From NCBI GenBank assembly GCA_963281255.1, contig OY725501.1, forward strand, positions 2,333,674 through 2,397,673: 64,000 nt of DNA, in the 5' to 3' direction. Below the pieces are notes generated by a model. The model worked only from the letters and a program-made list of their open reading frames with translations. It searched no databases and was not told the origin of the DNA. This document shows positions 34,862-57,588 of the stretch, in pieces. This DNA comes from Aphrocallistes beatrix. Its lineage: Eukaryota; Porifera; Hexactinellida; Sceptrulophora; Aphrocallistidae. Position 1 is the stretch's first letter. Each line of letters starts with the position of its first letter. A program made the position numbers and the translations under genes.

Positions 34862-36826
34862 ATGAGGCAATTTATCCTGCTTTCAATAGTGTGCAGCATA
34901 ATCTGGCACGTGCAAACAGAAATCTGCCGGCCTGAAGGAAGTACAAGATTATACAACTCTACCATTATCCAGGTTTGTTATAGCAGCGGGGGAGAGAGAA
35001 GATGGAGCTTTATATGCGACGAAGATTGGGATAATATTACCCTGAACGTGTACTGCAGGCAGGTAGGCTACGTTAGGAGTCGTGGCTTGTATTCGAATGG
35101 CAGTGAAAGCAACGAAGCTGATTCCCAGAGCAAATGTAGTGGAAATGAGCGCTCACTAATTGAATGTAGAACTCTTCTAAGTGAGAAAATGAATTGCGTA
35201 TACGTACGCGTCAACGAGAGTGAGGAATGCCGCCTGTGTCAGGCTGACAGTGAGTGCGGAGAAGGAATCTGCAGACATGGGAGATGTGAGTGTAGGGGAA
35301 ACTGCACAGACCAGATCTGTTATCAAGGTAGTTGCGATTTGCTCGCGAATGAAGGACATAGTGAGTTGATTCCAATCGTCATCATACCCTTAATTGCTGT
35401 GGGGATGGGAGTGGCGATAACAATAATTGGAGTTGGATGGCTGTGGGTCTTGCACAGAAGAAGAACTAAATCAACTGATACGATAAGTTCTGAAAAGAAA
35501 AAAGGGCCATCAGCCAGTTTAACTATAAAGCACTGTGATCTAGAAATGGGAAACGGGAATGTCACAGAATCAGAGGAAGGACTAATCAATGAAAGATTTA
35601 ACATATATGCACAACATTTTGAAACATCCCATCAAGAAGCTACCCCCTACCTAATCCCCTCAGTATTAAACAAAGAAGAAATCCATTCACTCGAGAGCGA
35701 GCTATACAGTGTTCTGGTGGAAGGAGAAGTGGCAGAGTACAGTGCTTATGCACAATCTTGCGGAATCGATCAAGAGACTTACATGAAACTGACACTGAAA
35801 TATCAAAAATCATTCCCTGATTACGAAACTGAGATATGCATAGATAATTCAAGAACAAACTCAATCTACATAGATCCCCCTTCTAGTCTGCCTCAGCTAG
35901 AGAACGTGTTCGGACAATGTCTGAACGAGATCAGGAGGAAGGACATCCAGATGGGAGAAGAGTTCGCATCCGGACAGTTCGGAGTGGTGTATCGGGCTGT
36001 CTACCACACTGAGAAAGGAGACATTCCTGTCGCCATCAAGACACTGAAGGAGGCTGCCAACACGGACACAAAGGTGGCATTCATGCGAGAAGCGGCCATC
36101 CTAGCTCAGTTCCAGCACCCTAACGTCCTCCGGATGATCGGAGTCCTCACAACTCAGCAGCCCTACATGATGGTGACGGAGCTACTCAAGACAGAACTGG
36201 AAGAACTATTGCTGAAATTAAGGGTTTTACAAACAAGCAAAGAGGAAGCTACCAAACGTATGTCTTATGCTCAAATTGTAAATCTCCCTCCTCTACTCCT
36301 CAGATTCTGTCAAGAGATAGCCGCCGGGATGAAACACCTGTCAGAGAAACACTTCATTCACAGAGACCTGGCTGCTCGGAATGTGTTAGTGGCGAAAGAT
36401 CTCTCTTGTCGAATCGCAGATTTCGGTATGTCCCGTGAGCTCCACTCTGACAGTGAGTACTACACCTCGTCAGGAGGTCGTGTCCCGCTACGCTGGACAG
36501 CTCCTGAAGCCGTCTTCTACAATAAATACTCAGAGAAGTCGGACGTGTGGTCGTTCGGGATGACGATGTATGAGATATGGTCGTTGGGAGATAAGCCTTG
36601 GGGAGAAAAAGCTTCAAACCAAGAAATAATCGAAGGGATGTCAAATGGAAGGGAGCTATCTCCTCCTACTGGGTGTCCTAGAAAAGTGAAGCAAGTGATG
36701 AAGGGGACTTGGGACAGGGATATTTCCTCTCGCCCTACATTCTCTAATGCTCTGGAAATGCTATCCGGAATTCAACTTCCTGTGGCCTCTCTATCCGTGG
36801 ATCAAGCTCAAAGTGACCATCTGTAA
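34862..36826 (+). CDS. SRCR-EGF receptor tyrosine kinase, intronless
   Basis: 654 residues. Signal peptide about 1-19. One SRCR-like domain about 20-125 (WSFICDEDWDNITLNVYCRQVGY, then CSGNERSLIEC). A Cys-rich EGF-like segment about 126-160 (CGEGICRHGRCEC). Membrane helix about 168-195, then a juxtamembrane region of about 165 residues with many tyrosines. The kinase domain starts near 360: glycine loop GEEFASGQFGVVYR, VAIK lysine K393, HRDLAARN with D502, DFG D520, an activation loop with paired tyrosines (SEYYTSSGG), and VPLRWTAPEA. All catalytic residues are present, so activity is expected. Compared with its three neighbours it has an 11-residue longer stretch after the hinge (RVLQTSKEEATKRMS), a different ectodomain and a different C-terminal tail, yet most of the kinase DNA is nearly identical. 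It is the only family member here on plus. Confidence 0.92.
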   Translation: MRQFILLSIVCSIIWHVQTEICRPEGSTRLYNSTIIQVCYSSGGERRWSFICDEDWDNITLNVYCRQVGYVRSRGLYSNGSESNEADSQSKCSGNERSLIECRTLLSEKMNCVYVRVNESEECRLCQADSECGEGICRHGRCECRGNCTDQICYQGSCDLLANEGHSELIPIVIIPLIAVGMGVAITIIGVGWLWVLHRRRTKSTDTISSEKKKGPSASLTIKHCDLEMGNGNVTESEEGLINERFNIYAQHFETSHQEATPYLIPSVLNKEEIHSLESELYSVLVEGEVAEYSAYAQSCGIDQETYMKLTLKYQKSFPDYETEICIDNSRTNSIYIDPPSSLPQLENVFGQCLNEIRRKDIQMGEEFASGQFGVVYRAVYHTEKGDIPVAIKTLKEAANTDTKVAFMREAAILAQFQHPNVLRMIGVLTTQQPYMMVTELLKTELEELLLKLRVLQTSKEEATKRMSYAQIVNLPPLLLRFCQEIAAGMKHLSEKHFIHRDLAARNVLVAKDLSCRIADFGMSRELHSDSEYYTSSGGRVPLRWTAPEAVFYNKYSEKSDVWSFGMTMYEIWSLGDKPWGEKASNQEIIEGMSNGRELSPPTGCPRKVKQVMKGTWDRDISSRPTFSNALEMLSGIQLPVASLSVDQAQSDHL

Positions 36827-37653
36827 AGAATTGTCCGTAAGAGTGGTTTTAAAATATACTTATGTATAAAAGCATGTGTTAATATATAATTATAACTACG
36901 TACATAATGTTAATAAAGCACAGATGGGAGAAATAGACATATATACTCAGAGTTTGGAGGGATCATAGATTTATGAAGTCTGAGGTATTTAAATAGACAA
37001 AGTATATTTAATAAATTAAGATCTAATTGTGATCAAAGCTGATTTAGTGGTCGCGCAAGGTAGGCTTCAAAGATGAAATTAGTTTCTTTGCCAATCAGAA
37101 GTACGTCTTTTGCAATTTTAAGGTAAATTAATTTATTCGAAATATTTAGGTCATTGTTACATTTATTAATTCAAGAGGGAACACTCCAGCGTCAAATCTT
37201 CAATCAGCTCATGTGATTAAAGTAATTCTACTTTTGCCATATCAAAAAATCAAGCATTAGATACGCAGATAATGAGGTTTAAAATGAGCTAGAACAGTAG
37301 CATTTTTCGCTCTAAGAAAAGTCTTACGCAGTCACATGGTGATATATCAACTTTTGACAGCTGTATTGCAAATCTGATTTAATACTTGTATATGGCAATA
37401 ATTCGTCTATCGTATACGGTTTTTGATTTGTCGGTCTAATTAAATTTTGAATAGTGTTAAAATTGGCCTTATATTTCTCTGGCCTTCCGGTGACATACAC
37501 GGCCGTGTATCAAGTAGGGAATGACTCAGTTTTAAAAATATAATTAAAAAGTCTTCTTTTCAAACACAATTAAAAACAACCAAACAATGCATGCAATATG
37601 GGGAATGGAAAAAAGATAAATATACACTAAAAAGAATAAAAATACCCAGACTA
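36827..37653. other. Spacer between convergent receptor kinase genes
   Basis: AT-rich region between the stops of the plus-strand and first minus-strand kinases. AATAAA-type motifs occur on both strands near the stops. No gene seen. Confidence 0.5.
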
Positions 37654-39966
37654 TCAAAAAACATGTTGGAGATCAAGATAGAGGTCCTGAGCTAGGACAG
37701 GGTCATTCCCTAGACAGAGAGAAGGTTCATTCACACCGGAAATAGGAGGAGGGAGCTGAATATCAGTCAGCATCACCTGCGCATCAGAAAAAGTAGGACG
37801 AAAGGAAGCATCTGCTCTCCAGGTTTCCACCATGACACGGTACACGTCTCGAGGACAGCCAGTGGGAGGAGACAGCTTCTTACCCTGACTCATCCCTTCA
37901 ACGATCTCATCGTTCGAGGTATACAAACCCCAAGGCTTTTCTCCCAACGACCATATCTCATACATCGTCATCCCGAACGACCACACGTCCGACTTCTCTG
38001 AGTATTTATTGTAGAAGACGGCTTCAGGAGCTGTCCAGCGTAGCGGGACACGACCTCCTGACGAGGTGTAGTACTCACTGTCAGAGTGGAGCTCACGGGA
38101 CATACCGAAATCTGCGATTCGACAAGAGAGATCTTTCGCCACTAACACATTCCTCGCAGCCAGGTCTCTGTGAATGAAGTGTTTCTCTGACAGGTGTTTC
38201 ATTCCGGCGGCTATCTCTTGACAGAATCTGAGGAGTCGAGGAGGGAGATTCTGTCTGTGTGCGGGATCAGCTGATTTCATTTTCAACAGTAAATCTGTCA
38301 GTTCTGTCTTGAGTAGCTCCGTCACCATCATGTAGGGCTGCTGAGTTGTGAGGACTCCGATCATCCGGAGGACGTTAGGGTGCTGGAACTGAGCTAGGAT
38401 GGCAGCTTCTCGCATGAATGCCACCTTTGTGTCCGTGTTGGCAGCCTCCTTCAGTGTCTTGATGGCGACAGGAATGTCTCCTTTCTCAGTGTGGTAGACA
38501 GCCCGATACACCACTCCGAACTGTCCGGATGCGAACTCTTCTCCCATCTGGATGTCCTTCCTCCTGATCTCGTTCAGACATTGTTCGAACACGTTCTCTA
38601 GCTGAGGCAGACTAGAAGGGGGCTCTATGTAGATGGGTTCCTCGTTAGGAGATTCTTTAACCAGTATGTCATACAGAGGATTCTCGAGTGTACTTGAGAT
38701 AGCAACCAACTTGTGATAAGCTACCTGATCCATCCTAGGTAATTGTTCATACAAGTTCCAGTTGCCCACTTCTCCTTCTACAAGACCTTCACAATATTCA
38801 TTATTTGTTAGGATGCAATTATTACTAATTGTCGGCACTAGATATTCTTGGACATCTTCACTATCTATAGTTCGTTTTCCTATCTCAGCATAAGCATAAT
38901 CTCTATCCATCAGTGAAGACTCATTGATAGCAGTGTAGTTAGGGTCTCCGTTGATAATGACAGTATTTTGATTTTCCACTTGACTATTCAAACTCGGTAT
39001 TCCAGATAACTCAGCATATATGGCGGTCTCGTCATTATCTGTTGAACCTTTAGTTCTTTTCCTACGAGAGCAGAATATACACGACAGTACCAGAATGACA
39101 ATGGTGAGAATAGTCAGGATGACGAGAATGGCTATGATAGGAACTAAAATGGGAATCAGCATCAACGACATCCTTGACTGCTGAGTTGAAGCTACAGATT
39201 GAGTAGACAAACTAGAGGAGGGAGTAGTGGAGGTAGTCGAAGGTATGCTAGGACTGGGAGGTGTGTTAGGAGGTGTAGGAGCTACTAGTAAGCCACTACT
39301 AGACAAGGTAGATGTGGACGTTACGTCATTAGGTATGGAATCGGTTGATGTAGAGCTTAGGCCACTGTTCTTAGATAGAATGGATGACACTATGCCACTA
39401 TCACCAGAAGAAGTGGAGGTAGTAGGTGGTGTATCGGGATTCGTTAGTGATGCAGAAATAGTTGAGCTGGTACTTGTAGCTTGTACAGTGTATGTGGAGG
39501 GGAAGAATGTAGTTGAATAAGCTGTGCTAGTGACCACACTTGAAGAGAAGCAATGTGTAGATGGGTCATAGAGTGGGTATCTACATTCTGAGTCTCTAGT
39601 TGTATATGCACAACTTAGCAAATTAAGTTCATCACCAACGCAATCAACATTGGAAAGTTTAACTTCATTAGCGCCATAATTAAAAATGGATCTCCCAGAT
39701 ACAGAATTAGCTCCTGAATATCCAAACTGTCTACAATACACATTGATGGTATTCTGATCCCAATCTTCATCATAACAAATATTGGTCCATTCTAAGGAAC
39801 CCGTGACATTAGTGCAGACTTGAATAGTATCACAGTTATAATCGTCACATTCTGAACCAAAGAAAAATTGATCAGATCTTAACTTTCCTCGAATGCTACA
39901 TTCTTCTGACTCAACAACATTGGCAGATAATGCAAGTACAATCAAGCATAAGAATATAAATTTCAT
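37654..39966 (-). CDS. SRCR-mucin-stalk receptor tyrosine kinase, copy A, intronless
   Basis: 770 residues. Signal peptide about 1-20 (ALSANVVES end). SRCR-like domain about 23-140 (EWTNICYDEDWDQNTINVYCRQFGY; DCVGDELNLLSC). A Ser/Thr/Pro-rich mucin-like stalk of about 120 residues, then a membrane helix about 267-297 followed by CSRRKR. The juxtamembrane region has repeated tyrosine motifs (IYAEL, NYTAI, YAYAEI, IYIEP). The kinase has K503 (VAIK), D601 (HRDLAARN) and D619 (DFG), all intact; the C-terminal tail ends in DLYLDLQHVF. The start at 39966 is secure because the frame upstream reaches a stop without another Met. A single-pass surface receptor; ligand unknown. It belongs to a segmentally duplicated group with the genes at 44318 and 54604. 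Confidence 0.93.
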   Translation of the reverse strand: MKFIFLCLIVLALSANVVESEECSIRGKLRSDQFFFGSECDDYNCDTIQVCTNVTGSLEWTNICYDEDWDQNTINVYCRQFGYSGANSVSGRSIFNYGANEVKLSNVDCVGDELNLLSCAYTTRDSECRYPLYDPSTHCFSSSVVTSTAYSTTFFPSTYTVQATSTSSTISASLTNPDTPPTTSTSSGDSGIVSSILSKNSGLSSTSTDSIPNDVTSTSTLSSSGLLVAPTPPNTPPSPSIPSTTSTTPSSSLSTQSVASTQQSRMSLMLIPILVPIIAILVILTILTIVILVLSCIFCSRRKRTKGSTDNDETAIYAELSGIPSLNSQVENQNTVIINGDPNYTAINESSLMDRDYAYAEIGKRTIDSEDVQEYLVPTISNNCILTNNEYCEGLVEGEVGNWNLYEQLPRMDQVAYHKLVAISSTLENPLYDILVKESPNEEPIYIEPPSSLPQLENVFEQCLNEIRRKDIQMGEEFASGQFGVVYRAVYHTEKGDIPVAIKTLKEAANTDTKVAFMREAAILAQFQHPNVLRMIGVLTTQQPYMMVTELLKTELTDLLLKMKSADPAHRQNLPPRLLRFCQEIAAGMKHLSEKHFIHRDLAARNVLVAKDLSCRIADFGMSRELHSDSEYYTSSGGRVPLRWTAPEAVFYNKYSEKSDVWSFGMTMYEIWSLGEKPWGLYTSNDEIVEGMSQGKKLSPPTGCPRDVYRVMVETWRADASFRPTFSDAQVMLTDIQLPPPISGVNEPSLCLGNDPVLAQDLYLDLQHVF

Positions 39967-40935
39967 CTCAGAAAATAATGGTAAATAAAATAGTACTATA
40001 TAAAGTTACCAGGTACTTACTTAGTAAAAGAATAATGGTAAATATATAAAGAAAGTCCTAATAATGAAATAAGATATTTATTCGAGATGGTTGTAATGGT
40101 ATCCACTTACATATTCATGGGGTTAATTAACCAAGAATATGTAAGTGTAGTAATTTCTTCCTACCACTTCACGTAATTAAATGAAGAAATCATATTCAAA
40201 AGTACTTTAATATATGGGTCAAAATTTAAAAGGATATATGTACGCTCATACATCTTATCAAGTAGTATGTAGAGATGTTGGCTTTTAAATGTATGAATCA
40301 GACCGGATCTTTTATGCCTCAATGTATTTGTGTTTGTTTTTTACAATTAAGAAATAACAAATTTATTCGCATATTAATATTGAAAATACACCAAGGGGAT
40401 ACAAGTATTTGAACATTTCATTATTTCACATACAAATTGTACATTTGAATCAGTCACTGTTGAATTTTTCGAATTAATCATTAATTCCTAACTTTTTAAA
40501 TTTTAACCACTAGTATATACATTATGGCAATGAATTAACTATGGTGGGTCAGGCCGATAAAATTATTCCTTGAGTTGAGTAATTATTTAGATACAAGCGC
40601 ACTTCGTGCACTTGCATAGCACGGCTAGCGATGACTTGAGCTAAGAATCCACTGTATATACAATTGGTATACATGTGTTAATGATCAGTCTATGATTAAG
40701 TTCGAAGATCCAAGCGAAATTTTCACACCTCTGCAAAAAAATATTTTTATACAAAATGCATGACTTCACTCTCACAATAGAAATCATTGTTCGACACTAT
40801 AATAGATTGTCATTGTTATTAATACTTCAAAGCAATAACTTATATAGATGTCTCAATTTTGTGTATAGAAATAAAAAAGGTCATGTGTATATTTTCACAC
40901 CGTTATACGAGATTTTGAAAATATGCTAGATATTA

Positions 40936-42272
40936 CAGGGGCATTCAATAAATACTAATCACGAAATATATTTCAATGAAAGAGTATTACTAACCCAGTC
41001 AACTCAATCCAATTATATACAACCATATTTTAACTCTATAACAAAACTTAGAGGGAGTTGATTACTCCATTATTTCTCGAGTAACAGTGATTTTAGATAT
41101 CTACATTTTGGACTATCATATTTTGCATGGCTTCTTGTCCTAATTACTCTGAAATTGAGCAACGGACGTATGTCAAATTTCGCACTATTCTCGAAATCCC
41201 TGCAAAGTCTATTTATGAGGAGCTGGCAATGATATGTGGAGAAGATTCTCTATCATATTCGACAGTCAGAAGGTGGGTAAACCTGTTCAGGGAAGGCAGG
41301 GCCTCTGTCCAAGACGCCCCTCGTCCTGGAGCACCAAAACTGGCGACCAACAGTGACAAATTGAGTGAGGTAAAGGAATACGTCGACTCTTTCCCCCATT
41401 CTTCGGTTGAGGACGTAGCTAACAACGCTGGCATTTCAACGGGAAGTGCACACGCGATTCTGAAGTCAGAGTTGGAACTGAGGAAGGTCCAAGTGCGATG
41501 GGTACCACATTGCCTGACTTCTCCACAAAAGGCCGCTAGACTCGAAATGGCCAAGGAAAACCTCAGAATCTATGAACGGTGTGACCCAAGACGGTTATTA
41601 GAGATAGTAACAGGGGATGAAACTTGGATACGATTCAAGCCACCGATCAGAAAACAAGATGGTAGGGTATGGCTGAAAAAAGGAGAGGTGCCCCCAGCTG
41701 TTTGCGTGTCCGACTTTCGTGCCCCGAAGGTCTTATACTGTATATTTTTCGATGGGCTAGGGCCTGTAGCCCAGATCCCTGTTCCCAAAGGCCAAACACT
41801 TACTGGACAATTCTACGCTGATGTGGTGTTACCTGAGGTTGAGAAATCGTACCTTAAGCGTCGTCCAAAGACTGGAACACGTGGTCTCAAAATTTTGCAT
41901 GATAATGCCAGACCACATAAAACCTTGGCTGTCAGGCAGAAAATTAAAGATATGGGTATGCACGAAGTCCTCCATCCACCTTACTCCCCTGATATAGCCC
42001 CATGTGACTTCTGGCTGTTCAGAAAACTAAAAGATCACCTCTCTGGACGCGAATTTGAAGATCGGCTGAGCCTTGGTCGGGCAGTTTTCCAATACCTCGA
42101 AGTCATACCCAAGGATGAGTATATGAAGACGTTTGAAAATTGGATTAAAAGGCTAAATTCTGTTGTAAAGTATAAAGGAGATTACTTTGAACATTCTTAG
42201 TAAAAATCATCCAATTTACACAATTAATTTTTTTTTTGGTGGGGTGTGATTAGTATTTATTGAATGCCCCTG
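40936..42272 (+). mobile_element. Mariner transposon, apparently complete
   Basis: 1,337 bp, with perfect terminal inverted repeats of about 27 bp beginning CAGGGGCATTCAATAAATAC, and TA on both sides (40934-40935 and 42273-42274). Contains one uninterrupted transposase gene. Length and structure are those of autonomous mariners. The insertion splits a degenerate R2-like repeat. Confidence 0.9.
41127..42200 (+). CDS. Mariner transposase (DD34D), intact
   Basis: 357 residues, unbroken. The N-terminal paired helix-turn-helix DNA-binding region (about 8-115) has RTYVKFRTILEIPAKSIYEE and a second HTH around FPHSSVEDVANNAGIS; the linker is RWVPHCLT (WVPHxL motif). The catalytic triad is D164 (GDETW), D259 (HDNARPH) and D294 (YSPDIAPCDFWLF), with exactly 34 residues between the last two, the mariner signature. 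It cuts and pastes the element that encloses it, at TA sites. All motifs are present, so it may still be active or very recently active. Its terminal repeats are identical for about 27 bp, which supports youth. Confidence 0.93.
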   Translation: MASCPNYSEIEQRTYVKFRTILEIPAKSIYEELAMICGEDSLSYSTVRRWVNLFREGRASVQDAPRPGAPKLATNSDKLSEVKEYVDSFPHSSVEDVANNAGISTGSAHAILKSELELRKVQVRWVPHCLTSPQKAARLEMAKENLRIYERCDPRRLLEIVTGDETWIRFKPPIRKQDGRVWLKKGEVPPAVCVSDFRAPKVLYCIFFDGLGPVAQIPVPKGQTLTGQFYADVVLPEVEKSYLKRRPKTGTRGLKILHDNARPHKTLAVRQKIKDMGMHEVLHPPYSPDIAPCDFWLFRKLKDHLSGREFEDRLSLGRAVFQYLEVIPKDEYMKTFENWIKRLNSVVKYKGDYFEHS

Positions 42273-44317: not shown

Positions 44318-46426
44318 TTACTTAACTAGCTGGAGATCAAGATAGAGGTCCTGAGCTAGGACAGGGTCATTCCCTAGACAGAGAGAAGGTTCATTCACAC
44401 CGGGAATAAGAGGAGGGAGCTGAATATCAGTCAGCATCACCTGTGCATCAGAAAAAGTAGGACGAACGGAAGCATCTGCTCTCCAGGTTTCCACCATGAC
44501 ACGGTACACGTCTCGAGGACAGCCAGTGGGAGGAGACAGCTTCTTACCCTGACTCATCCCTCCAACGATCTCCTCGTTCGAGGTATACAAACCCCAAGGC
44601 TTATCTCCCAACGACCATATCTCATACATCGTCATCCCGAACGACCACACGTCCGACTTCTCTGAGTATTTATTGTAGAAGACGGCTTCAGGAGCTGTCC
44701 AGCGTAACGGGACACGACCTCCTGACGAGGTGTAGTACTCACTGTCAGAGTGGAGCTCACGGGACATACCGAAATCTGCGATTCGACAAGAGAGATCTTT
44801 CGCTACTAACACATTCCTCGCAGCCAGGTCTCTGTGAATGAAGTGTTTCTCTGACAGGTGTTTCATTCCGGCGGCTATCTCTTGACAGAATCTGAGGAGT
44901 AGAGGAGGGAGATTCTGTCTGTGTGTGGGATCAGCTGATTTCATTTTCAACAGTAAATCTGCCAGTTCTGTCTTGAGTAGCTCCGTCACCATCATGTAGG
45001 GCTGCTGAGTTGTGAGGACTCCGATCATCCGGAGGACGTTAGGGTGCTGGAACTGAGCTAGGATGGCAGCTTCTCGCATGAATGCCACCTTTGTGTCCGT
45101 GTTGGCAGCCTCCTTCAGTGTCTTGATGGCGACAGGAATGTCTCCTTTCTCAGTGTGGTAGACAGCCCGGTACACCACTCCGAACTGTCCGGATGCGAAC
45201 TCTTCTCCCATCTGGATGTCCTTCCTCCTGATCTCGTTCAGACATTGTCCGAACACGTTCTCTAGCTGAGGCAGACTAGAAGGGGGATCTATGTAGATGG
45301 GTTCCTCGTTAGGAGATTCTTTGACCAGTATGTCATACAGAGGATTCTCGAGTGTACTTGAGATAGCAACCAACTTGTGATAAGCTTCCTGATCCATCCT
45401 AGGTAATTGTTCATACAAGTTATAGTTGCTCACTTCGCCTTCCACTAAATGCCCATACAACTCATTATCTATTGAGGAGTAATTATCATTAATTGGTGCT
45501 AGATATTCTTGGACATCTTCACTATCTAGAGTTCGTTTTCCTATCTCAGCATAAGCATGATCTCTATCCATCAGTGAAGTCTCATTGATAGCAGTGTAGT
45601 TAGGGTCTCCGTTGATAATGACAGTATTGTGATTTTCTACTTTACTATTCAAACTCGGTATTCCAGATAACTCAGCATACATGGTGGTCTCGTCATTATC
45701 TATTGAACCTTTAGTTCTTTTCCTACGAGAGCAGAATATACACGACAGTACCAGAATGACAATGGTGAGAATAGTCAGGATGACAAGAATGGCTATGATA
45801 GGAACTAAAATGGGAATCAGCATCAACGACATCCTTGACTGCTGAGTTGAAGCTACAGATTGAGTAGACAAACTAGAGGAGGGAGTAGTGGAGGTAGTCG
45901 AAGGTATACCAATACTTGTAGCTTGTACAGTGTATGTGGAGGGGAAGAATGTATTTGAATAAGCTGTGCTAGTGACCACACTTGAAGAGAAGCAATGTGT
46001 AGATGGGTCATAGAGTGGGTATCTACATGCTGAGTCTCTAGTTGTATATACACAACTTAGCAAATTAAGTTCATCACCAACGCAATCAACATTAGAAAGT
46101 TTAATCTCATTATCACCATAATAACGATAAGATCTATAAACGCCATCTAAACCCCCAGATACAGAATTAGCTCCTGAATATCCAAACTGTCTACAATACA
46201 CATTGATGCTATTCTGATCCCAATCTTCATCATAACAAATATTGGTCCATTCTAAGGAACCCGTGATATTAGTGCAGACTTGAATAGTATCACAGTTATA
46301 ATCGTCACATAATGAAATAGTGGAAAATGGATCAGATCTTAACTTTCCTCGAATGCTACATTCTTCTGATTCAACAACATTGGCAGATAATGCAAGTACA
46401 ATCAAGTACAAGAATAGAAATTTCAT
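44318..46426 (-). CDS. SRCR-mucin-stalk receptor tyrosine kinase, copy B, intronless
   Basis: 702 residues from the Met at 46426. The frame extends 15 codons further (to 46471), but copy A has a stop in that extension and the chosen Met begins the shared signal peptide (KFLFLYLIVLALSANVVES). SRCR-like domain as in copy A, with an extra GLDGVYRSYRYYGD segment. The mucin-like stalk is much shorter, with about 65 residues of the Ser/Thr region absent compared with A. Membrane helix about 197-230. Kinase intact: K435, D533 (HRD), D551 (DFG). The juxtamembrane region differs from A around residues NDNYSSIDNELYGHLVEGE, which it shares with copy C. It sits downstream of the hAT-like element at 43902 and upstream of shared flank, so it is unit 2 of the duplication. 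Confidence 0.93.
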   Translation of the reverse strand: MKFLFLYLIVLALSANVVESEECSIRGKLRSDPFSTISLCDDYNCDTIQVCTNITGSLEWTNICYDEDWDQNSINVYCRQFGYSGANSVSGGLDGVYRSYRYYGDNEIKLSNVDCVGDELNLLSCVYTTRDSACRYPLYDPSTHCFSSSVVTSTAYSNTFFPSTYTVQATSIGIPSTTSTTPSSSLSTQSVASTQQSRMSLMLIPILVPIIAILVILTILTIVILVLSCIFCSRRKRTKGSIDNDETTMYAELSGIPSLNSKVENHNTVIINGDPNYTAINETSLMDRDHAYAEIGKRTLDSEDVQEYLAPINDNYSSIDNELYGHLVEGEVSNYNLYEQLPRMDQEAYHKLVAISSTLENPLYDILVKESPNEEPIYIDPPSSLPQLENVFGQCLNEIRRKDIQMGEEFASGQFGVVYRAVYHTEKGDIPVAIKTLKEAANTDTKVAFMREAAILAQFQHPNVLRMIGVLTTQQPYMMVTELLKTELADLLLKMKSADPTHRQNLPPLLLRFCQEIAAGMKHLSEKHFIHRDLAARNVLVAKDLSCRIADFGMSRELHSDSEYYTSSGGRVPLRWTAPEAVFYNKYSEKSDVWSFGMTMYEIWSLGDKPWGLYTSNEEIVGGMSQGKKLSPPTGCPRDVYRVMVETWRADASVRPTFSDAQVMLTDIQLPPLIPGVNEPSLCLGNDPVLAQDLYLDLQLVK

Positions 46427-48652: not shown

Positions 48653-49971
48653 CAGTGGAGTCGCTATCATAGTATACTTTCCCCAAAACTAGTAATATAA
48701 TTAATATCAATGCTGCAATTTCTCGAAATACTCTCCTTGATGCTGTATAACTAGTTTTAGCCTCTTAATCGAACCCAAAAAACTTTTTTGAAGTCTTCTC
48801 GCGGTATACCTTTCATATACTGAAAATCGCCGATCCGAGGTAAGCCCGACTTTCGAATTCACTCCCTGACAGGTGTTTCTTCAGCTTAGGGAAGAGCCAA
48901 AAGTCGCATGGAGCGAGGTCTGGTGATTAGGGAGGATGATCTAGCTCTATAACTCTCAGACTTTCCAACTTTTCCCTTACCAGCTTGGTCTTGTGGGGTC
49001 GGGCATTATCATGCAATAATCTCAATCCTCGAGTCCCAGTCATTGGCCGTCGATTGTGGTATAATTTCTCAACCTCAGATAGGCACTCATTCATGTAAAA
49101 TGATCCAGTAATAGTGGTATTCTTGGGGACACAAATCTGGCACACTGGACCATAAGAAAAAAATATATGCAGTACATAACCTTGAGGTTCCGGAAGTCAT
49201 GTCGAGGGATCATTGGTGGGTCCAGGGCCTTTAGCTACCCATACTTTGTTAGCTTCCTTTGACAAAGGCTCGCTATAACACACCCAAGTCTCATCACCGG
49301 TCACGATCTCGAATAGACTCCTGGAGTCGGTTCTATCGAAGTCAGAAAGCAACTTTTGAGCACATTGAACCCTCTTAGTTTTCTGGGCCTGTGTTAGTGC
49401 ATGCGGGACCCATCGAGCGCAGATTTTCCTAAATTGCAAATTGTCACGCACAATGGTATGAGCGGTTCCCGTTGAGACCCCAACTGCATTAGCTATCTCC
49501 ACCAATGAAATATGAGGGTCTTCCTCAAGTAATTCGGAAACCTCGAGGACACATTTGTCACTGGCGCCGGAAATCGGCTTCCCTGCTCTGGGCTTATCTT
49601 CTATCGACTCTCTTCCCTCACGAAAACGTCGAGTCCAGTCAACTATCGTGGAATATGGAAGAGTTCTATCATTATAAACCTCAATCAAATCCTTGTGGAT
49701 GTCGGTTGGAGAAAATTGGAGCAGTGTACGAATCTTTACATAGGCTCGCTGCTCAATTTTGAAATCTGCACTCTCGGAAGCCATAATAAATGCCAGTATA
49801 TAAAAATGCCAAACTAATAATAGCCACATTTTAAAAACAGAATTGAAAAAGTTAAGTATCATTTGAAAGAGCATCGGTAGGGTTACATTATATATGCTAA
49901 CCGAATTCTGAACCAAATGAAACAACCAAGATATATCGCAATAACGACTACTTATTGAACGTCCGTAGTAC
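48653..49971 (-). mobile_element. Second, degenerate mariner element
   Basis: Boundaries come from comparison with the empty duplicate (40640-40680, GAATCCACTGTATATACAAT). The right end reads, on minus, ACGGACGTTCAATAAGTAGT; the other end retains only the inner part of the repeat (GGAGTCGCTATCA), so it is truncated by about 15 bp. Confidence 0.7.
48750..49784 (-). pseudogene. Mariner transposase pseudogene (DD34D)
   Basis: It begins at a Met at 49784 (ASESADFKIEQRAYVKIRTL), with the paired HTH, the WVPHALT linker and GDETWV. A deletion/frameshift near 49150-49210 (after VWVAKGPGPTNDPS) breaks the frame. The next piece has HDNARPHKTKLV; then the Tyr of the PPYSPD motif is a stop codon (PP*SPDLAPCDFWLF). 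Further stops follow. The spacing of the last two aspartates is still 34. It is clearly diverged from the intact transposase at 41127, so it is a different mariner lineage. Confidence 0.85.
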
Positions 49972-50502
49972 AATTGGCATGTAGGTGTCAATGATCAGTC
50001 TATGATTAAGTTCGAAGATCTAAGCGAAATTTTCACACCTCTGCAAAAAAAAGTTTTTAGGGATGTAGATTCCGAATATTTTATTTTCAGATCAATAAGA
50101 TATTTTTTTTGTTTACATTTATTTACAATTGCTACATAAAATAAACAAATTCTAAAAATTAGCTAGATAATAGCTTCAATTGTTTTTAGGGGTATATATT
50201 CCAAATATCGTATTTTCGATCTTTAATGGATATATTTTTTGTCTACATACAGTGCTGTCATAAAGTAAACAAAATTGAAATGGATTAGTGAATTTTATTA
50301 TATTCCCTGGCGTCCACAGGGAGACTCTGCGAACACGACAGCTCTTGATGGAAAACAAGCTGACAACGTTCGTATAATGTAGAAACAGTTCTGTTTTAGT
50401 ACCACATGGGAAGAATGAAGACATCGCAGCAACACGATAATCTCAAGACAAAATAAAGTTAGTGCGCGGAAAGGTACAATGCTGTAGAAACACCTGCTGG
50501 AT

Positions 50503-50742
50503 ATGAATCAGCTGACTATTAATACAATAAATGTCAATTTTGCATTCGATCGTAACGTTTGTACGCAGGCTACTCGCCCATCTAAATTCAGGTTCTCATC
50601 CACTGATCAAAGGGACGGTTTCAGCTCTCAAGTAAAAAGAATAAAATGGCCAGAGTCGATTCATGCCGTCCCACTCACGAAAGAACTGGAAATTTTAACT
50701 ATTTTTCTCGAGAAAATTAAAACTTTCTCTAGTTTATATTAA
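50503..50742 (+). other. Conserved short open frame in the duplicated flank (copy 2)
   Basis: Counterpart of 42642-42875, nearly identical, reading on by a few codons at the 3' end. Function unknown and coding status unproven. Confidence 0.25.
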
Positions 50743-51601: not shown

Positions 51602-52725
51602 TCTTATATATTAAAATGCTAGGATTTTTTTGTTTTTGTTTGTCCGAATTGATTGAAGATTTGGCAAGTCGTAGAGATACGAAAATTGGCAGGTTGGTGT
51701 CAAATGATGAATCTATGATTAAGTTCGAAAATCTAAGAGAAATTTTCACACCTCTGCAAAAAAAATGGAAAACAATTTTTCACACCTTTTCTATACAAAA
51801 TAAAGGACTACACTATCACAATATAAATTATTGTACGACACTACAATAGATCGTCATTGTTAATAATACTTCAAAGCCACAACTTATGTTTGATATCTTA
51901 AATGTATTATAGTGTATAGCAATAAAAAATATTATGTGCATATTTTCACACCTTTTGAAGAATTTTGAAAAATATGCTAGAGACTAGCTTCCAACGGTTG
52001 ACATGTGGGTTTTAGGGGTGTAGATTTAGAATATCATATTTTCAGATCTATATGATAAATTATTTGTTTACTTTTGTTTACATTATAAAGATAAAGTAAA
52101 CAAATGACAAAAATAAGCTAGAAACTAGCTTCCAACGGTTAACATGGGGTTTTTAGAGGTGTAGATTTCGAATATCATATTTTCAGATCATTATGATAAA
52201 TTATTTGTTTACTTTTGTTTACATTAGATACATAAAGTAAACAAATTACAAAATGAGCTAGAAACTAACTTCCAATGTTTGACATGGGGTTTTCAGGGTT
52301 TAGATCTTGGATATTATATTTTTGTATCCATATGAGAAATTACATGGTATAACAAAAGTGTTGTCACCCTAGATTATTTATCATTATGCTTGATTGATAT
52401 CGAACCAATAGAAATCAAATACAAAACTCTTAGCCTGTCGTGAGCTATCACGCATTACCATATTTTATGACATCACACCATTTGTGAAATGCACTTTTCC
52501 TTTCCCATTATCAAATTTTTGTTCACCTATTAAATTTGTGCTAAGATGAAAGGTGACAACACCTTTGTTACACCCTGTATTTGTTAACTTATGCTCACAA
52601 TATTTATATAAATTAAACAATTTCCCAAAATAGGCTAGATTGGGTCATTCCAGGCGCCCGTAGGGCGACTCTGCGGACACGTAGTGTCCGCAAGCCGCGC
52701 AGCGCAAGCAAGCGAAGCGCGCATG
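51602..52725 (+). mobile_element. Helitron-like repeat R2 (copy 2)
   Basis: Start TCTTATATATTAAAATGCTA; tail GCGGACACGTAGTGTCCGC hairpin, then CGCAGCGCAAGCAAGCGAAG and CGCGCATG. The interior holds about three direct copies of a roughly 135-bp unit (near 51975, 52108 and 52248) containing CTTCCAACGGTT, GACATGGGGTTTT and TTGTTTACTTTTGTTTACA. The next R2 copy starts at the very next base. Confidence 0.55.
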
Positions 52726-53489
52726 TCTTATATATTAAAATGCTAGGATTTTTTTGTCCGAATTGATTGAAGAATTGGCAAGTCGTAGAGATACGAAAAT
52801 TGGAAGGTAGGTGTCAAATTATGTATCTAGGATTAAGTTCGAAAAGCTAAGCGAAATTTTCACACCTCTGCAAAAAAAATGGAAAACAAAATTTCACACC
52901 TTTTCTATACAATACTATGTACGGCTTCAATCTCACAATAGAAATCATTATAATACACTATTGTAGGCTGCCATTGTTATTAATACTTCAAAGCAATAAC
53001 TTATATAAATGTCTCAATTATATATGATAGTGTATGGCAGTAAAAAAGGTTATTTGTATATTTTCACAACTTTATATACATATTTTCACACGATTTGACG
53101 AATTTTGAAAATTATGCTAGAGACTAGCTTCCAACGGTTGACATGGGGTTTTTAGGGGTGTAGATTTCGAATATCATATTTTCAGATCGATATGATGAAT
53201 GTTTTGTTTACTTTTGTTTACAATAGATACATAATGTAAACAAATTACAAAAATAGGCTAGAGACTTGCTTCCAACGGTTGACATGGGGTTTTCCGGAAT
53301 GTAGATTTAGAATATTTTATTTTCAGATCTATATGATAAATTATTTGTTAACTTATGTTTACAGTATTTATATAAAGTAAACAAATTCCGAAAATAGGCT
53401 ACATTGAGTAACTCCAGGCGCCCGCAGGGCGACTCTGCGGACACAAAGTGTCCGCAAGCCGCGCAGCGCAAGTAAGCGAACCGCGCTTG
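52726..53489 (+). mobile_element. Helitron-like repeat R2 (copy 3), head-to-tail
   Basis: Start TCTTATATATTAAAATGCTA directly after the preceding copy. Two internal 135-bp-type units (53107 and 53250). The tail is GCGGACACAAAGTGTCCGC, then CGCAGCGCAAGTAAGCGAAC and CGCGCTTG. Confidence 0.55.
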
Positions 53490-53935
53490 TATATATATGA
53501 AACGAATTGATTAAAGAACAGAAAGCTGATTTTTGGCATGTGTGAATCTTTTGGTTATGACTTCACTAAATTCTGACTCAGACGAAAATGTCGACTCATC
53601 ATGGAATTATGACGTCATTGTCACCTTTTTTAAATAATTAGAAATTTCAGTTTTTCGACTATAACTAAGCCATTTCAGGTGATAGAAGGCTGAAATTTTA
53701 ATAGAATGTGTATAATCATATATCTCAAATATATTACAATTATCATCAATTATCAAAATGATGACTCATCAATCTGTTATGACGTCATCATTACGCATCA
53801 AATAAATTAAAAAATTGACAAATTTGGTAATTTTTTGAGTTTTATCGATTATAACAGTAGGACAGACGTATTTAGAGATTATATCTCCGTTATAATTAAT
53901 CAATGTGACCCCAGGCGCCCAAAGGGCGCCTGGTG
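53490..53935 (+). mobile_element. Helitron-like R1 copy 5, truncated at both ends
   Basis: Follows the R2 copy directly. It starts in the TA run (TATATATATGAAACGAATTG), keeps the R1 body, and stops at CAGGCGCCCAAAGGGCGCCTGG without the GC-rich end. Confidence 0.55.
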
Positions 53936-54195
53936 TCTATCTATATAGCCTACTATAAAACTATGTAAGGATCATTTCGAACGAATTCGAATGTTCGGTA
54001 TATTCGGTTCAGCTCTAATAAAAACAGCTATGCTTACACAAACTAACGAAATAGAGTATTACTATTTCATCTGCTATAGGAATAAATTCCCAAGAGCATA
54101 GAAGTATACATCCAGATTATATATTAGAATCTTGTCTACTCTTAATTAAAACTACGTACTACATAAAGTAATACTCCTAGTGAATTCCTAGCAAT

Positions 54196-54291
54196 TAGAG
54201 GTCGCAAGCCCGGCCCGAGCCCGAAGCCCGATCGGGATCGGGCCTCAGTCTGTCGGGTCGGGCAGATAATTCAGGCCCGTTGCGACCTCTA
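54196..54291. mobile_element. hAT-like MITE, duplicate of 43902-44007
   Basis: Same ends and the same CTAGCAAT flanks (54188-54195 and 54292-54299). About 10 bp shorter inside. The identical target duplication shows that it was copied with the segment rather than inserted twice. Confidence 0.8.
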
Positions 54292-54603
54292 CTAGCAATA
54301 CACTAAGCACAACTGGTATGACTGGATCAAAGTCTGGCACCATGGTGTACCTCACTCAGCTTATCAATTATGCTGAAATATATTATCTTAAACACGCATA
54401 CAGATACTCAGAATCAGCTTGAAGTATGTTGTGTACGATTATGAGATTTCCGGGTCTGCAAAGCGAACTAAGCTATCATCAAAACATTTGTTTTTAACCA
54501 AAACATAATAAAATAAAACATCAAACAAAATAATACATGCAACAAAAGGAGGATAAACAAAGGTAAGATACACGCTGAGCTTAAACCTGGAATTATCAGA
54601 TTC

Positions 54604-57588
54604 TTATTTAACTAGCTGGAGATCAAGATAGAGGTCCTGAGCTAGGGCAGGGTCATTCCCTAGACAGAGAGAAGGTTCATTCACACCGGGAATAGGAGGA
54701 AGGAGCTGAGCATCAGTCAGCATCACCTGTGCATCAGAAAAAGTAGGACGAAAGGAAGCATCTGCTCTCCAGGTTTCCACCATGACACGGTACACGTCTC
54801 GAGGACAGCCAGTGGGAGGAGACAACTTCTTACCCTGACTCATCCCTTCAACGATCTCATCGTTCGAGGTATACAAACCCCAAGGCTTATCTCCCAACGA
54901 CCATATCTCATACATCGTCATCCCGAACGACCACACGTCCGACTTCTCTGAGTATTTATTGTAGAAGACGGCTTCAGGAGCTGTCCAGCGTAGCGGGACA
55001 CGACCTCCTGACGAGGTGTAGTACTCACTGTCAGAGTGGAGCTCACGGGACATACCGAAATCTGCGATTCGACAAGAGAGATCTTTCGCCACTAACACAT
55101 TCCTCGCAGCCAGGTCTCTGTGAATGAAGTGTTTTTCTGACAGGTGTTTCATCCCGGCGGCTATCTCTTGACAGAATCTGAGGAGGAGGGAAGGGAGATT
55201 CTGTCTGTGTGCGGGATCAGCTGATTTCATTTTCAACAGTAAATCCGCCAGTTCTGTCTTGAGTAGCTCCGTCACCATCATGTAGGGCTGCTGAGTTGTG
55301 AGGACTCCGATCATCCGGAGGACGTTAGGGTGCTGGAACTGAGCTAGGATGGCAGCTTCTCGCATGAATGCCACCTTTGTGTCCGTGTTGGCAGCCTCCT
55401 TCAGTGTCTTGATGGCGACAGGAATGTCTCCTTTCTCAGTGTGGTAGACAGCTCGATACACCACTCCGAACTGTCCGGATGCGAACTCTTCTCCCATCTG
55501 GATGTCCTTCCTCCTGATCTCGTTCAGACATTGTCCGAACACGTTCTCTAGCTGAGGCAGACTAGAAGGGGGCTCTATGTAGATGGGTTCCTTGTTAGGA
55601 GATTCTTTAACCAGTATGTCATACAGAGGATTCTCGAGTGTACTTGAGACAGCAACAAATTTGTGATAAGCTACCTGATCCATCCTAGGTAATTGTTCAT
55701 ACAAGTTATAGTTGCTCACTTCTCCTTCCACTAAATGCCCATACAACTCATTATCTATTGAGGAGTAATTATCATTAATTGGTGCTAGATATTCTTGGAC
55801 ATCTTCACTATCTAGAGTTCGTTTCCCTATCTCAGCATAAGCATAATCTCTATCCATCAGTGAAGTCTCATTGATAGCAGTGTAGTTAGGGTCTCCGTTG
55901 AGAAAGACAGTATTTTGATTTTCTACTTGACTATTCAAACTCGGTATTCCAGATAACTCAGCATATATGGCGGTCTCGTCATTATCTGTTGAACCTTTAG
56001 TTCTTTTCCTACGAGAGCAGAATATACACGACAGTACCAGAATGACAATGGTGAGAATAGTCAGGATGACAAGAATGGCTATGATAGGAACTAAAATGGG
56101 AATCAGCATCAACGACATCCTTGACTGCTGAGTTGAAGCTACAGATTGAGTAGACAAACTAGAGGAGGGAGTAGTGGAGGTAGTCGAAGGTATACCAGTA
56201 CTTGTAGCTTGTACAGTGGAAGTGGAAGGGAAGAATGTAGTTGAATAAGTTGTGCTAGTGACCACACTTGAAGAGAAGCAATCAGTGCAGTAGAGTGCAG
56301 AAGTGGTGGAGGTATCCGAAGGTATGACAGGACTGGGAGGTGTGATAGGAGGAGGTGTAGGAGCTACTAGTAAGTCACTACTAGACGAGGTAGATGTGGA
56401 CGTTACGTCATTAGGGATGGAATCGGTTGATGTAGAGCTTAGGCCATTGCTCTCAGATGGAATGGATGACTTTATGCCATCATCACCAGAAGAAGTGGAG
56501 GTAGTAGGTGGTGTATCGGGATTCGTTAGTGATGCAGAAATAGTTGAGCTGGTACTTGTAGGTTGTACAGTGTATGTGGAGGGGAAGAATGTAGTTGAAT
56601 AAGCTGTGTTAGTGACCACACTTGAAGAGAAGCAATTAGTGCAATCGAATGCAGAAGCAGTAGTGGAGATAATCGAAGGTATGCTAATTCTGGGAGTTGT
56701 GTTAGGAGGCGGTGTAGGAACTAGTAAGCTACTAATAGACAGAGTAGACGTTATATCAATAGAGGTGGAAGGAGTAGAAGTAGGAATCAGTGAATTACTA
56801 CTGATAGACAAAGTGGTTGTTAAAGATGTTGCGTCATTAGCTATGGAATTAGTTGATGTTGAGATTACGCTATTGTGAGAGATAACATTGTTTATAATCG
56901 AAGTGGGAGTAGAAGGAATCTCAACGCTTGTTAGAGGTATGGTAGTAAGGGTTAAATGAGAAGATCTTAAGCTGGTGCTTGTAGCTTGTGTCCCATATGT
57001 GGAGGAAAAGAATGAACTTGAGAGCTGATAACTAGAGATGGTAGGATATTGTGTGGCTAAATTAGCTGTTGTGTCCATGACCACATTTGAAGAGAGAGCG
57101 GAAGATGATGAACTGATGCTGGGAGTGAGGGTACTAGAGGATGAATCGATGGGACTATCTGTTTTGTTGTAACATTGGTTAGGTAGGTCATAGAATAAGT
57201 AGTCACATCTTGAATCTGTAATAGTATATCCACAACTTAGCAAATCCGATTCATCACCAGCGCAATTAAGACTAGAAAGTTTCATTACGTTATTGAAGCA
57301 CCCATTGCCGGTTATAGGACAAGTGCGACTAGCCCCAATAGGGTTAGCTCCTGAATATCCAAACTGTCTACAATACACGTTGAAGGTATTTTGATCCCAA
57401 TCTTCATCAAAACAAATAATAGTCCATTCTAAGGGATCCGTGACATTAGTGCAGATTTGAATTGTATCACAATCCATGCATGGACCAGGAAATATCATGT
57501 TTCTTAACTCTCCTCTACTTTTACAAATTTCTGATTCAACAACATTGGCAGATAATGCAAGTATCAAGCATAAGAATAGAAATATCAT
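54604..57588 (-). CDS. SRCR-mucin-stalk receptor tyrosine kinase, copy C, intronless, longest stalk
   Basis: 994 residues from the Met at 57588, chosen by alignment with copies A and B; the frame extends 15 codons further upstream. Signal peptide (ends ALSANVVES), then an SRCR-like domain about 20-140, more diverged than in A and B (CKSRGELRN, GASRTCPITGNGC). A very long Ser/Thr/Pro-rich stalk of about 350 residues follows. It contains three versions of a module beginning (C)FSSSVV then ..YSTTFFPST, with NPDTPPTTSTSSGD and DSIPNDVTSTST blocks, so it grew by internal duplication. Membrane helix about 492-525. The kinase is intact: K727, D825 (HRD), D843 (DFG). The tail is nearly identical to that of copy B. 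Probably heavily O-glycosylated and extended from the surface. Confidence 0.93.
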   Translation of the reverse strand: MIFLFLCLILALSANVVESEICKSRGELRNMIFPGPCMDCDTIQICTNVTDPLEWTIICFDEDWDQNTFNVYCRQFGYSGANPIGASRTCPITGNGCFNNVMKLSSLNCAGDESDLLSCGYTITDSRCDYLFYDLPNQCYNKTDSPIDSSSSTLTPSISSSSSALSSNVVMDTTANLATQYPTISSYQLSSSFFSSTYGTQATSTSLRSSHLTLTTIPLTSVEIPSTPTSIINNVISHNSVISTSTNSIANDATSLTTTLSISSNSLIPTSTPSTSIDITSTLSISSLLVPTPPPNTTPRISIPSIISTTASAFDCTNCFSSSVVTNTAYSTTFFPSTYTVQPTSTSSTISASLTNPDTPPTTSTSSGDDGIKSSIPSESNGLSSTSTDSIPNDVTSTSTSSSSDLLVAPTPPPITPPSPVIPSDTSTTSALYCTDCFSSSVVTSTTYSTTFFPSTSTVQATSTGIPSTTSTTPSSSLSTQSVASTQQSRMSLMLIPILVPIIAILVILTILTIVILVLSCIFCSRRKRTKGSTDNDETAIYAELSGIPSLNSQVENQNTVFLNGDPNYTAINETSLMDRDYAYAEIGKRTLDSEDVQEYLAPINDNYSSIDNELYGHLVEGEVSNYNLYEQLPRMDQVAYHKFVAVSSTLENPLYDILVKESPNKEPIYIEPPSSLPQLENVFGQCLNEIRRKDIQMGEEFASGQFGVVYRAVYHTEKGDIPVAIKTLKEAANTDTKVAFMREAAILAQFQHPNVLRMIGVLTTQQPYMMVTELLKTELADLLLKMKSADPAHRQNLPSLLLRFCQEIAAGMKHLSEKHFIHRDLAARNVLVAKDLSCRIADFGMSRELHSDSEYYTSSGGRVPLRWTAPEAVFYNKYSEKSDVWSFGMTMYEIWSLGDKPWGLYTSNDEIVEGMSQGKKLSPPTGCPRDVYRVMVETWRADASFRPTFSDAQVMLTDAQLLPPIPGVNEPSLCLGNDPALAQDLYLDLQLVK

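What the first reader, a model, noticed from the sequence alone, without database searches (positions are those of the whole stretch)
34862..57588. Four intronless SRCR receptor tyrosine kinases with near-identical kinase DNA but different ectodomains
The kinase-coding DNA is almost the same in all four genes, even in the plus-strand gene, whose ectodomain (SRCR plus EGF-like) and C-terminal tail are quite different. In that gene, near-identity starts around 35868, is interrupted by a unique insert at about 36197-36285, and stops near 36602 within the kinase C-lobe. Such sharp borders, on an inverted copy, point to gene conversion or ectodomain swapping rather than simple recent duplication. 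The logic (variable outside, constant signalling inside) resembles a self/non-self or pathogen-sensing repertoire, and SRCR domains are often innate immune receptors. The function is inference.
Basis: partly seen in the sequence, partly recalled or inferred. Interest (0 to 1): 0.8.

Follow-up and report, generated by a model that had tools for sequence, protein, structure and literature searches.

The report
Receptor kinases trading their kinase halves
In this animal genome, cell-surface tyrosine-kinase receptors with different outer parts have copied or swapped kinase DNA with one another, and some ephrin-type receptors did the opposite, which gives a natural series for studying how receptor families combine sensing and signalling parts.

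Summary
Four single-ORF SRCR receptor tyrosine kinases lie in the window. In the plus-strand gene (A1) near-identity runs 35864-36200 and 36281-36603, is broken by a divergent island and stops at 36604. Mean dS, A1 against six relatives: SRCR saturated, juxtamembrane 2.3, tract 1 0.021, island saturated, tract 2 0.091, C-lobe end 1.5. Constraint cannot give this; sequence exchange does. The island is more likely A1's own old D-E loop than a new insertion. The family has eight members, one on another contig. The signature recurs: kinase-limited tracts on C10, C11 (710 nt, 100% identical) and C12, and a C4 gene with an ectodomain like one C9 gene and a kinase half like another. Some Eph-like receptors show the reverse: shared ectodomain stretch, saturated kinase. 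Kinases of the four kinase-tract clusters have raised GC3, which fits GC-biased conversion but does not prove it. Gene conversion is well supported; direction is unsettled; an immune or self/non-self role is untested. I found nothing like it for animal receptor tyrosine kinases in ten searches of an open-access library.

The parts
34862..36826 (+). A1: intronless SRCR receptor tyrosine kinase, 654 aa, inverted relative to A2-A4, convergent with A2
35864..36200 (+). A1 exchange tract 1 (end of juxtamembrane and kinase N-lobe to alphaD); mean dS to six relatives 0.021; GC3 0.68
36201..36280 (+). A1 unconverted island: long alphaD-alphaE loop; dS saturated; GC3 0.26
36281..36603 (+). A1 exchange tract 2 (alphaE to C-lobe); mean dS 0.091; GC3 0.57
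36604..36826 (+). A1 unconverted C-lobe end and tail; mean dS 1.5; GC3 0.38
37654..39966 (-). A2: SRCR receptor tyrosine kinase, 770 aa, with Ser/Thr-rich stalk
37928..38250 (-). A2 counterpart of tract 2
   Evidence: (pair I1)
38298..38634 (-). A2 counterpart of tract 1
   Evidence: (pair I5)
44318..46426 (-). A3: SRCR receptor tyrosine kinase, 702 aa
44592..44914 (-). A3 counterpart of tract 2
   Evidence: (pair I2)
44962..45298 (-). A3 counterpart of tract 1
   Evidence: (pair I4)
54604..57588 (-). A4: SRCR receptor tyrosine kinase, 994 aa, with a long, internally repetitive stalk
54878..55200 (-). A4 counterpart of tract 2
   Evidence: (pair I3)
55248..55584 (-). A4 counterpart of tract 1
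   Evidence: (pair I6)

Best explanation
These are members of a large set of mostly single-exon receptor tyrosine kinases of an early-branching animal (probably a sponge: recalled, not tested). Pieces of their DNA have been exchanged between paralogues on the same and on different contigs. In family A the kinase core was shared by ectopic gene conversion between A1 and the A2-A8 lineage. The conversion stopped at the juxtamembrane segment, skipped the non-homologous alphaD-alphaE loop and stopped again before the C-lobe end, so A1 keeps its own SRCR ectodomain, loop and tail (the dS steps and borders are shown; the order of events is inferred). Among A2-A8, A4 and A5 have old SRCR domains on cytoplasmic halves that are nearly alike (shown); whether the halves were homogenised or the SRCR parts acquired is not decided. 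Likely cause (inferred): after duplication only the constrained kinase keeps enough identity to start recombination; each event restores identity and permits the next, and repair bias may raise GC3. The ectodomain falls below that threshold and drifts or is selected apart. The expected product is a receptor whose outside changes while an interchangeable active kinase and tyrosine-rich juxtamembrane segment keep signalling (inferred from motifs).
For: dS contrast along A1. Sharp borders and exact-run test. The same kinase segments are saturated against non-family kinases (pS 0.62-0.94; A1 and A2 each against 7 kinases, 14 comparisons per tract), so low dS is not a property of kinase codons. Independent cases: C11 pair 0 of 159 synonymous sites differ in the tract against 190 of 243 before it; C12 pair 8.5/228 against 162/226; C10 L038/L039 11/198 against 232/310. 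C4 chimera: two matches abut at C4:6104998-6105003, and the kinase-half match runs on 426 nt past the ORF end; ectodomain and cytoplasmic trees of nine genes reject each other (AU p 0.001 and 6e-42). Control: in 6 of 6 pairs among Eph-like L001, L003, L004, L006 silent divergence before and from the kinase on does not differ (Fisher p 0.097-1.0). GC3 excess over the value expected from amino acids: +0.22 (15 kinases in tract clusters) against +0.08 (20 others), Mann-Whitney p 7e-7; inside A1 it follows the tract borders.
Against: Direction is not resolved: A1 sits on a near-zero branch at the base of the family in the tract tree and shares some states with the C10 outgroup; a tree with A2-A8 as a clade without A1 is equally good (AU 0.573 against 0.427). 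Tract 2 dS of A1 (0.091) matches that among A2-A8 (0.080), so one exchange at the start of the A2-A8 radiation would explain tract 2 without continuing conversion. GC polarity of segregating sites is not informative (S>W 4, W>S 2 in tract 1; 10 and 7 in tract 2). The Eph ectodomain tract of L007/L008 shows no clear GC3 excess; two kinases without a detected partner (L046 0.54, L048 0.58) come near or overlap the converted range (A1 0.56); A1's SRCR GC3 is also fairly high, 0.49. The 15 GC3 values come from only four clusters. The Eph control genes are uneven in small windows (pS 0.04-0.44). No expression data.
Confidence: 0.85

Rival explanations
1. Simple recent tandem duplication with strong purifying selection on the kinase and relaxed ectodomains; no exchange between paralogues.
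For: A2, A3 and A4 share flanking DNA and have alike cytoplasmic halves.
Against: Selection on protein does not hold silent sites; dS of A1 falls from 2.3 to 0.021 at a border of a few bases and rises again. The same segments are silent-saturated against other kinases. At blastn E 1e-5 the A1 region (33001-37200) matches the A2 and A3 regions only in 35864-36781.
Confidence: 0.03
2. A passive homology ratchet only: conversion happens wherever identity is left, with no selection for a diverse sensing repertoire. The pattern 'constant inside' is a by-product of kinase constraint.
For: Borders fall where homology ends in A1 (juxtamembrane, D-E loop, C-lobe end) and are not at one fixed domain boundary across the clusters. 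Some Eph-like genes show the reverse, with an ectodomain stretch shared and the kinase saturated (L007/L008; L005 against four genes). SRCR pN/pS ratio 0.92 among close copies.
Against: Does not by itself explain why four of the five non-Eph groups found (A, C10, C11, C12; not C9/C4) are kinase-limited, nor why A1 stayed under constraint outside the tracts (dN/dS 0.25-0.49 in juxtamembrane and C-lobe end, with dS near saturation).
Confidence: 0.5
3. Domain exchange by ordinary crossing-over or duplication with a break, giving chimeric genes (ectodomain swap) and not non-reciprocal conversion.
For: The C4 gene has one breakpoint just inside the membrane and its kinase-half match continues past the ORF end.
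Against: A1, the C11 pair and the L007/L008 pair have two-sided tracts with diverged DNA on both sides, which a single crossover does not give.
Confidence: 0.15
4. RNA-mediated conversion or retrocopies: intronless genes overwritten by reverse-transcribed mRNA.
For: Genes are single-exon; the C12 tract ends at the stop codon (match ends 4277301, stop ends 4277300).
Against: The C9/C4 kinase ORFs end at an apparent splice site inside the C-lobe, and the C4-C9 match runs on 426 nt beyond it, so that exchange was DNA-level; A2-A4 share DNA beyond the coding frame.
Confidence: 0.08
5. Assembly artefact: copies collapsed or mis-joined.
For: The C11 tract is 100% identical over 710 nt.
Against: A1 differs from its relatives at 1-3 of 318 columns in tract 1 and 6-12 of 324 in tract 2, the C4 gene differs from both parents by pS 0.13-0.15, and flanks are saturated.
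Confidence: 0.03

Closest known systems
Arabidopsis OAK (OUTGROWTH-ASSOCIATED PROTEIN KINASE) receptor-like kinase cluster, PMC3136440 (passages read)
   Same: Tandem receptor kinases in which a gene-conversion tract covers one functional part: a 2.7 kb identical fragment from 13 bp upstream of the start to the first 60 bp of the kinase sequence.
   Different: Plant receptor-like kinases; the converted part there is the ectodomain, in A1 it is the kinase. Here it recurs in several clusters and across contigs of an animal genome.
Eph receptors
   Same: Of the 60 best PDB chains listed for the A1 kinase most are EphA/EphB (E about 1e-61 and weaker), then the NGF receptor; the top row is a chain named EGFR (9p9u_A, E 1.5e-87), which I did not examine.
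   Different: Pfam reports no ephrin-binding or SAM domain in A1-A4 at E<=0.01; they have SRCR. The genome has separate Eph-like genes with SAM.
SRCR innate receptors (CD5L, CD163, DMBT1, MARCO) and sponge SRCR repertoires
   Same: SRCR domain by Pfam and PDB sequence match of the A3 domain; large SRCR sets are reported in sponges (Halichondria, PMC8242945, passages).
   Different: Those SRCR proteins are not tyrosine kinases (recalled). In the passages of PMC8242945 that I read I saw no SRCR-tyrosine kinase fusion.
Holozoan receptor tyrosine kinase domain shuffling and the 'longDE' insert, PMC8662651 (passages)
   Same: Diverse ectodomains on related kinases; the A1 island lies at the D-E loop.
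   Different: That work describes shuffling between families over deep time; 'gene conversion' occurs 0 times in its main text. Here tracts are recent and base-resolved.

Membership tests
Receptor tyrosine kinase | Tyrosine kinase domain with intact catalytic motifs | tested here: met
   PF07714 E 2e-81 to 3e-80 in A1-A4; VAIK, HRDLAARN, DFG and APE read in the alignment. A8 has HRY in place of HRD.
Receptor tyrosine kinase | Single membrane span with extracellular N-terminus | tested here: inconclusive
   Hydrophobic segment between ectodomain and kinase read by eye; no predictor run.
Receptor tyrosine kinase | Ligand-induced autophosphorylation | not testable with these tools
   needs experiment
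SRCR superfamily | SRCR domain over curated cut-off | tested here: met
   PF00530 34.3, 38.9, 34.8 and 30.1 bits for A1-A4, cut-off 26.1; A6 33.8 and A8 35.6, A5 25.1 just below. AlphaFold of the A3 domain failed (pLDDT 31).
Eph receptor | Ephrin-binding domain and SAM | tested here: not met
   none reported in A1-A4 at E<=0.01
Ectopic gene conversion (concerted evolution) | Silent divergence low inside, saturated outside, sharp two-sided borders | tested here: met
   independent cases
Ectopic gene conversion (concerted evolution) | GC-biased signature | tested here: inconclusive
   GC3 raised in 4 of 4 kinase-tract clusters and follows the A1 borders, but site polarity and the L007/L008 tract do not show it
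Self/non-self or pathogen-recognition repertoire | Positive or balancing selection, polymorphism, immune-cell expression | not tested
   one genome only; SRCR pN/pS ratio 0.92 among A2, A3, A6, A8

The most novel reading that the evidence does not exclude
The genome runs a combinatorial receptor system. A pool of kinase cassettes is kept interchangeable by repeated, GC-biased conversion and by swaps across contigs, so that fast-changing SRCR and other ectodomains are always tied to a working signal. Eph-type receptors are maintained the opposite way, with a constant outside and a variable inside. This would be an evolved sensing or allorecognition repertoire at the base of animals.
Probability: 0.22. 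Interest if true: 0.82.

Novelty: new variant of a known kind. Interest (0 to 1): 0.62.

Why it matters
Receptor tyrosine kinase families expanded in early animals, and their ectodomains and kinases are known to have been shuffled, but the process is usually seen only as old outcomes. Here several exchanges are young enough to map to the base, in both directions (kinase-limited and ectodomain-limited), within and between contigs. That makes testable whether the homogeneity of kinases in such families is selection for interchangeable signalling or a by-product of recombination needing identity. It is also a practical warning: kinase-domain trees of such families can be wrong for the genes that carry them.

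Tried and rejected
Simple duplication with constraint was rejected by silent-site profiles. A new insertion into A1's kinase was judged unlikely: the alignable codons of the island are also saturated and its length matches C10 kinases; amino-acid identity to C10 over it is only 0.26, so descent is not proven. Direction of conversion was tried by tree and AU test: undecided. Structure of the SRCR domain was predicted from an 8-row alignment: pLDDT 31, unusable, no fold search made. GC polarity at segregating sites: too few sites. Positive selection on SRCR: not shown. Organism: TGF-beta domains found, 5 places, which I take as a sign of an animal (recalled); no Wnt match, which the tool itself calls uninformative because no control rang. 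Literature: ten library searches listed no paper that I could recognise as describing kinase-limited conversion in animal receptor tyrosine kinases; I saw listings and abstract starts only, except passages in three papers. The library lacks most subscription journals.

Full report
What is there. The window lies at C15:2333674-2397673 of a 100.5 Mb, 28-contig genome. Four single open reading frames carry SRCR and a tyrosine kinase domain: A1 34862-36826 (+), A2 37654-39966 (-), A3 44318-46426 (-), A4 54604-57588 (-). A1 and A2 are convergent. DNA and protein searches of the same genome add A5 (C15, beyond the window), A6 (contig C3), A7 (C15, truncated with an in-frame TAG) and A8 (C15; the catalytic HRD reads HRY). 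The genome has five TGF-beta matches, which I take as a sign of an animal; that it is a sponge is my recollection of such gene sets and was not tested.

The borders. Positions at which A1 differs from all six full-length relatives (A2-A6, A8) are dense up to 35863, absent from 35864 to 36200 except 36094, dense from 36201 to 36280, absent from 36281 to 36603 and dense again from 36604. Mean synonymous distance (Nei-Gojobori, A1 against six): SRCR saturated; transmembrane plus juxtamembrane 2.3; tract 1 0.021; island saturated; tract 2 0.091; C-lobe end and tail 1.5. The longest exact run of A1 with a relative is 128 to 230 nt, against a largest value of 30 to 44 in 2000 column shuffles. The same kinase segments are saturated at silent sites against kinases outside the family (pS 0.62-0.94; A1 and A2 each against seven kinases, 14 comparisons per tract), so low silent divergence is not a property of kinase sequence.

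The island. It lies in the alphaD-alphaE loop and is 27 codons long in A1 against 16 in its relatives. The 16 alignable codons are saturated, and the C10 kinases have a loop of the same length class, though only 26% identical. I read it as A1's own old loop left standing between two converted stretches, not as a later insertion.

Among the other copies. For A4 against A5 the SRCR dS is 0.94 while transmembrane-juxtamembrane dS is 0.025 and tract 1 dS 0.028. A2, A7 and A8 share one juxtamembrane block type and A3, A4, A5 and A6 another, although A2 and A3 have the closest SRCR domains. Runs of shared polymorphic sites are longer than expected after Bonferroni correction at 0.05 in 8 of 15 pairs: five of these runs lie in the juxtamembrane segment or C-lobe end (A3-A4, A4-A5, A3-A5, A2-A5, A5-A8), three in the SRCR or stalk (A2-A4, A3-A8, A6-A8). 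So the copies are mosaics, mostly but not only in the cytoplasmic half.

Other clusters. I compared 37 receptor kinase ORFs by all-against-all blastn (hits of at least 85% over 80 nt), those for which searches gave loci. One search gave 151 matches to PF07714, a lower bound for a family that also covers Ser/Thr kinases, so this is not the whole kinome. C11 pair L049/L051 (convergent): 710 nt, 100% identical, 0 of 159 silent differences inside and 190 of 243 before, with a further 104-nt stretch at 93% in the 3' flank. C12 pair L050/L052 (convergent): 8.5/228 against 162/226, the tract ending at the stop codon. C10 quartet: L038 and L040 are alike throughout (45/313 and 9/197), but L039 against L038 is 11/198 in the kinase half and 232/310 before it; L041, with almost no ectodomain, joins over the kinase with rising divergence at the C-lobe end (last window pS 0.28-0.34). 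C4 gene L058: ectodomain and membrane span like C9 L055 (33/252), cytoplasmic half like C9 L054 (34/224), the two matches abutting at C4:6104998-6105003; the kinase-half match continues 426 nt past the ORF end, so the exchange was at DNA level. Trees of the two halves reject each other (AU p 0.001 and 6e-42, nine genes). L054 and L059 show a weaker step (32/230 against 114/236). In all I count 23 of 37 ORFs in at least one domain-limited exchange: 8 in family A, 4 on C10, 2 on C11, 2 on C12, 4 on C9/C4 (L054, L055, L058, L059), and Eph-like L005, L007 and L008; the four Eph-like partners of L005 are not counted.

The reverse case. Eph-like L007 and L008 share an ectodomain stretch (about residues 53-370 of the part held; 40-codon windows pS 0.00-0.15) with saturated kinases, and L005 shares part of its ectodomain with L001, L003, L004 and L006 (80-codon windows 0.08-0.27) while its kinase is saturated (0.73-0.79). 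The loci held for the Eph-like genes are shorter than their ORFs, so the first 150 residues or so were not compared. In 6 of 6 pairs among L001, L003, L004 and L006 silent divergence before the kinase and from the kinase on does not differ (Fisher p 0.097-1.0), though small windows vary (0.04-0.44): receptor kinases in this genome do not show the step by default. The reverse case means that 'constant inside, variable outside' is not a law here.

GC3. Kinases of the four kinase-tract clusters (A, C10, C11, C12; 15 genes) have GC3 0.56-0.70, the 20 other receptor kinases 0.39-0.58, so the ranges just overlap; excess over the value expected from amino acids is +0.22 against +0.08 (Mann-Whitney p 7e-7). 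Two of the 37 ORFs were left out before this count: A7 (truncated) and L002 (GC-rich throughout). The C9/C4 and Eph genes were counted with the others because no repeated kinase tract was seen in them. Within A1, GC3 follows the tract borders: SRCR 0.49, juxtamembrane 0.36, tract 1 0.68, island 0.26, tract 2 0.57, tail 0.38. This is what GC-biased conversion would leave, but the 15 genes are four clusters, two kinases without a detected partner (L046, L048) are also high, the L007/L008 ectodomain tract is not clearly raised, and polarity at the few segregating sites is uninformative.

Direction and timing. A tree of the two tracts puts A1 on a near-zero branch at the base of the family; a tree with A2-A8 as a clade is equally good (AU 0.573 and 0.427). 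A1 shares several states with the C10 outgroup. The donor may therefore have been A1-like or the ancestor of A2-A8. Tract 2 is about as old as the A2-A8 cytoplasmic halves (dS 0.091 against 0.080); tract 1 is younger or further homogenised (0.021 against 0.014).

How it probably works. Ectopic gene conversion needs long identity (established knowledge). After duplication the constrained kinase keeps it, so conversion keeps renewing kinases while ectodomains drift or are selected apart (inference). Catalytic motifs are intact in A1-A6 as read from the alignment, and the juxtamembrane segments of the seven full-length genes carry 9 to 12 tyrosines, several in YxxL/I and YxxP settings, so an active receptor with many docking sites is the likely product (inference). 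Whether the variable SRCR domains sense microbes, self or development is open: SRCR pN/pS is 0.92 among close copies, showing weak constraint and no proven positive selection.

Known background. Conversion limited to one part of a receptor kinase is known in Arabidopsis OAK (PMC3136440, passages). Ectodomain shuffling of receptor tyrosine kinases over deep time is known (PMC8662651, passages). Sponges have large SRCR sets (PMC8242945, passages). I found no report of base-resolved kinase exchange among animal receptor tyrosine kinases in ten searches of an open-access library, which is not proof of absence. I therefore call it a new variant of a known kind.

Noticed in passing
C1:8866782 (L005), C1:7552591-7557376 (L007/L008): Eph-like receptors in which an ectodomain stretch is shared and the kinase silent-saturated, the mirror image of the window genes.
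   Followed up: partly
C9:92105-116523: Run of eight receptor tyrosine kinase ORFs on one strand that end at an apparent splice donor in the kinase C-lobe. Pfam finds SRCR in L053 and L055 but not in L054 or L059; the others were not all scanned, and the last (115063-116523) has almost no ectodomain.
   Followed up: partly
C15:2641396-2643714 (A8, L031): Otherwise intact family member with HRY in place of the catalytic HRD: a possible pseudokinase receptor.
   Followed up: no
window 41097-42200 (+) and 49197-49994 (-): Mariner/Mos1-like transposase ORFs between A2 and A3 and between A3 and A4.
   Followed up: no
window 51968-52342 and 53108-53401; 60431-60605: 141-bp tandem repeats between A3 and A4 and a 31-bp tandem repeat beyond A4's start.
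   Followed up: no
window 13735-13871 (+): U8 small nucleolar RNA, full-length Rfam match, 56.7 bits.
   Followed up: no
window 109-1359 (-), 12415-13371 (-), 8468-9286 (-): Glycosyl hydrolase family 99, rRNA adenine dimethylase and RING-finger ORFs.
   Followed up: no
C1:10790920 (L002): A receptor kinase ORF with GC3 0.74 before and 0.68 in the kinase; in none of the other 35 ORFs listed is the part before the kinase above 0.43.
   Followed up: no
A2-A6, A8 juxtamembrane segments: YTAI-x11-YAEI in six of six genes (not in A1), matching the spacing of an ITAM; chance not assessed.
   Followed up: no
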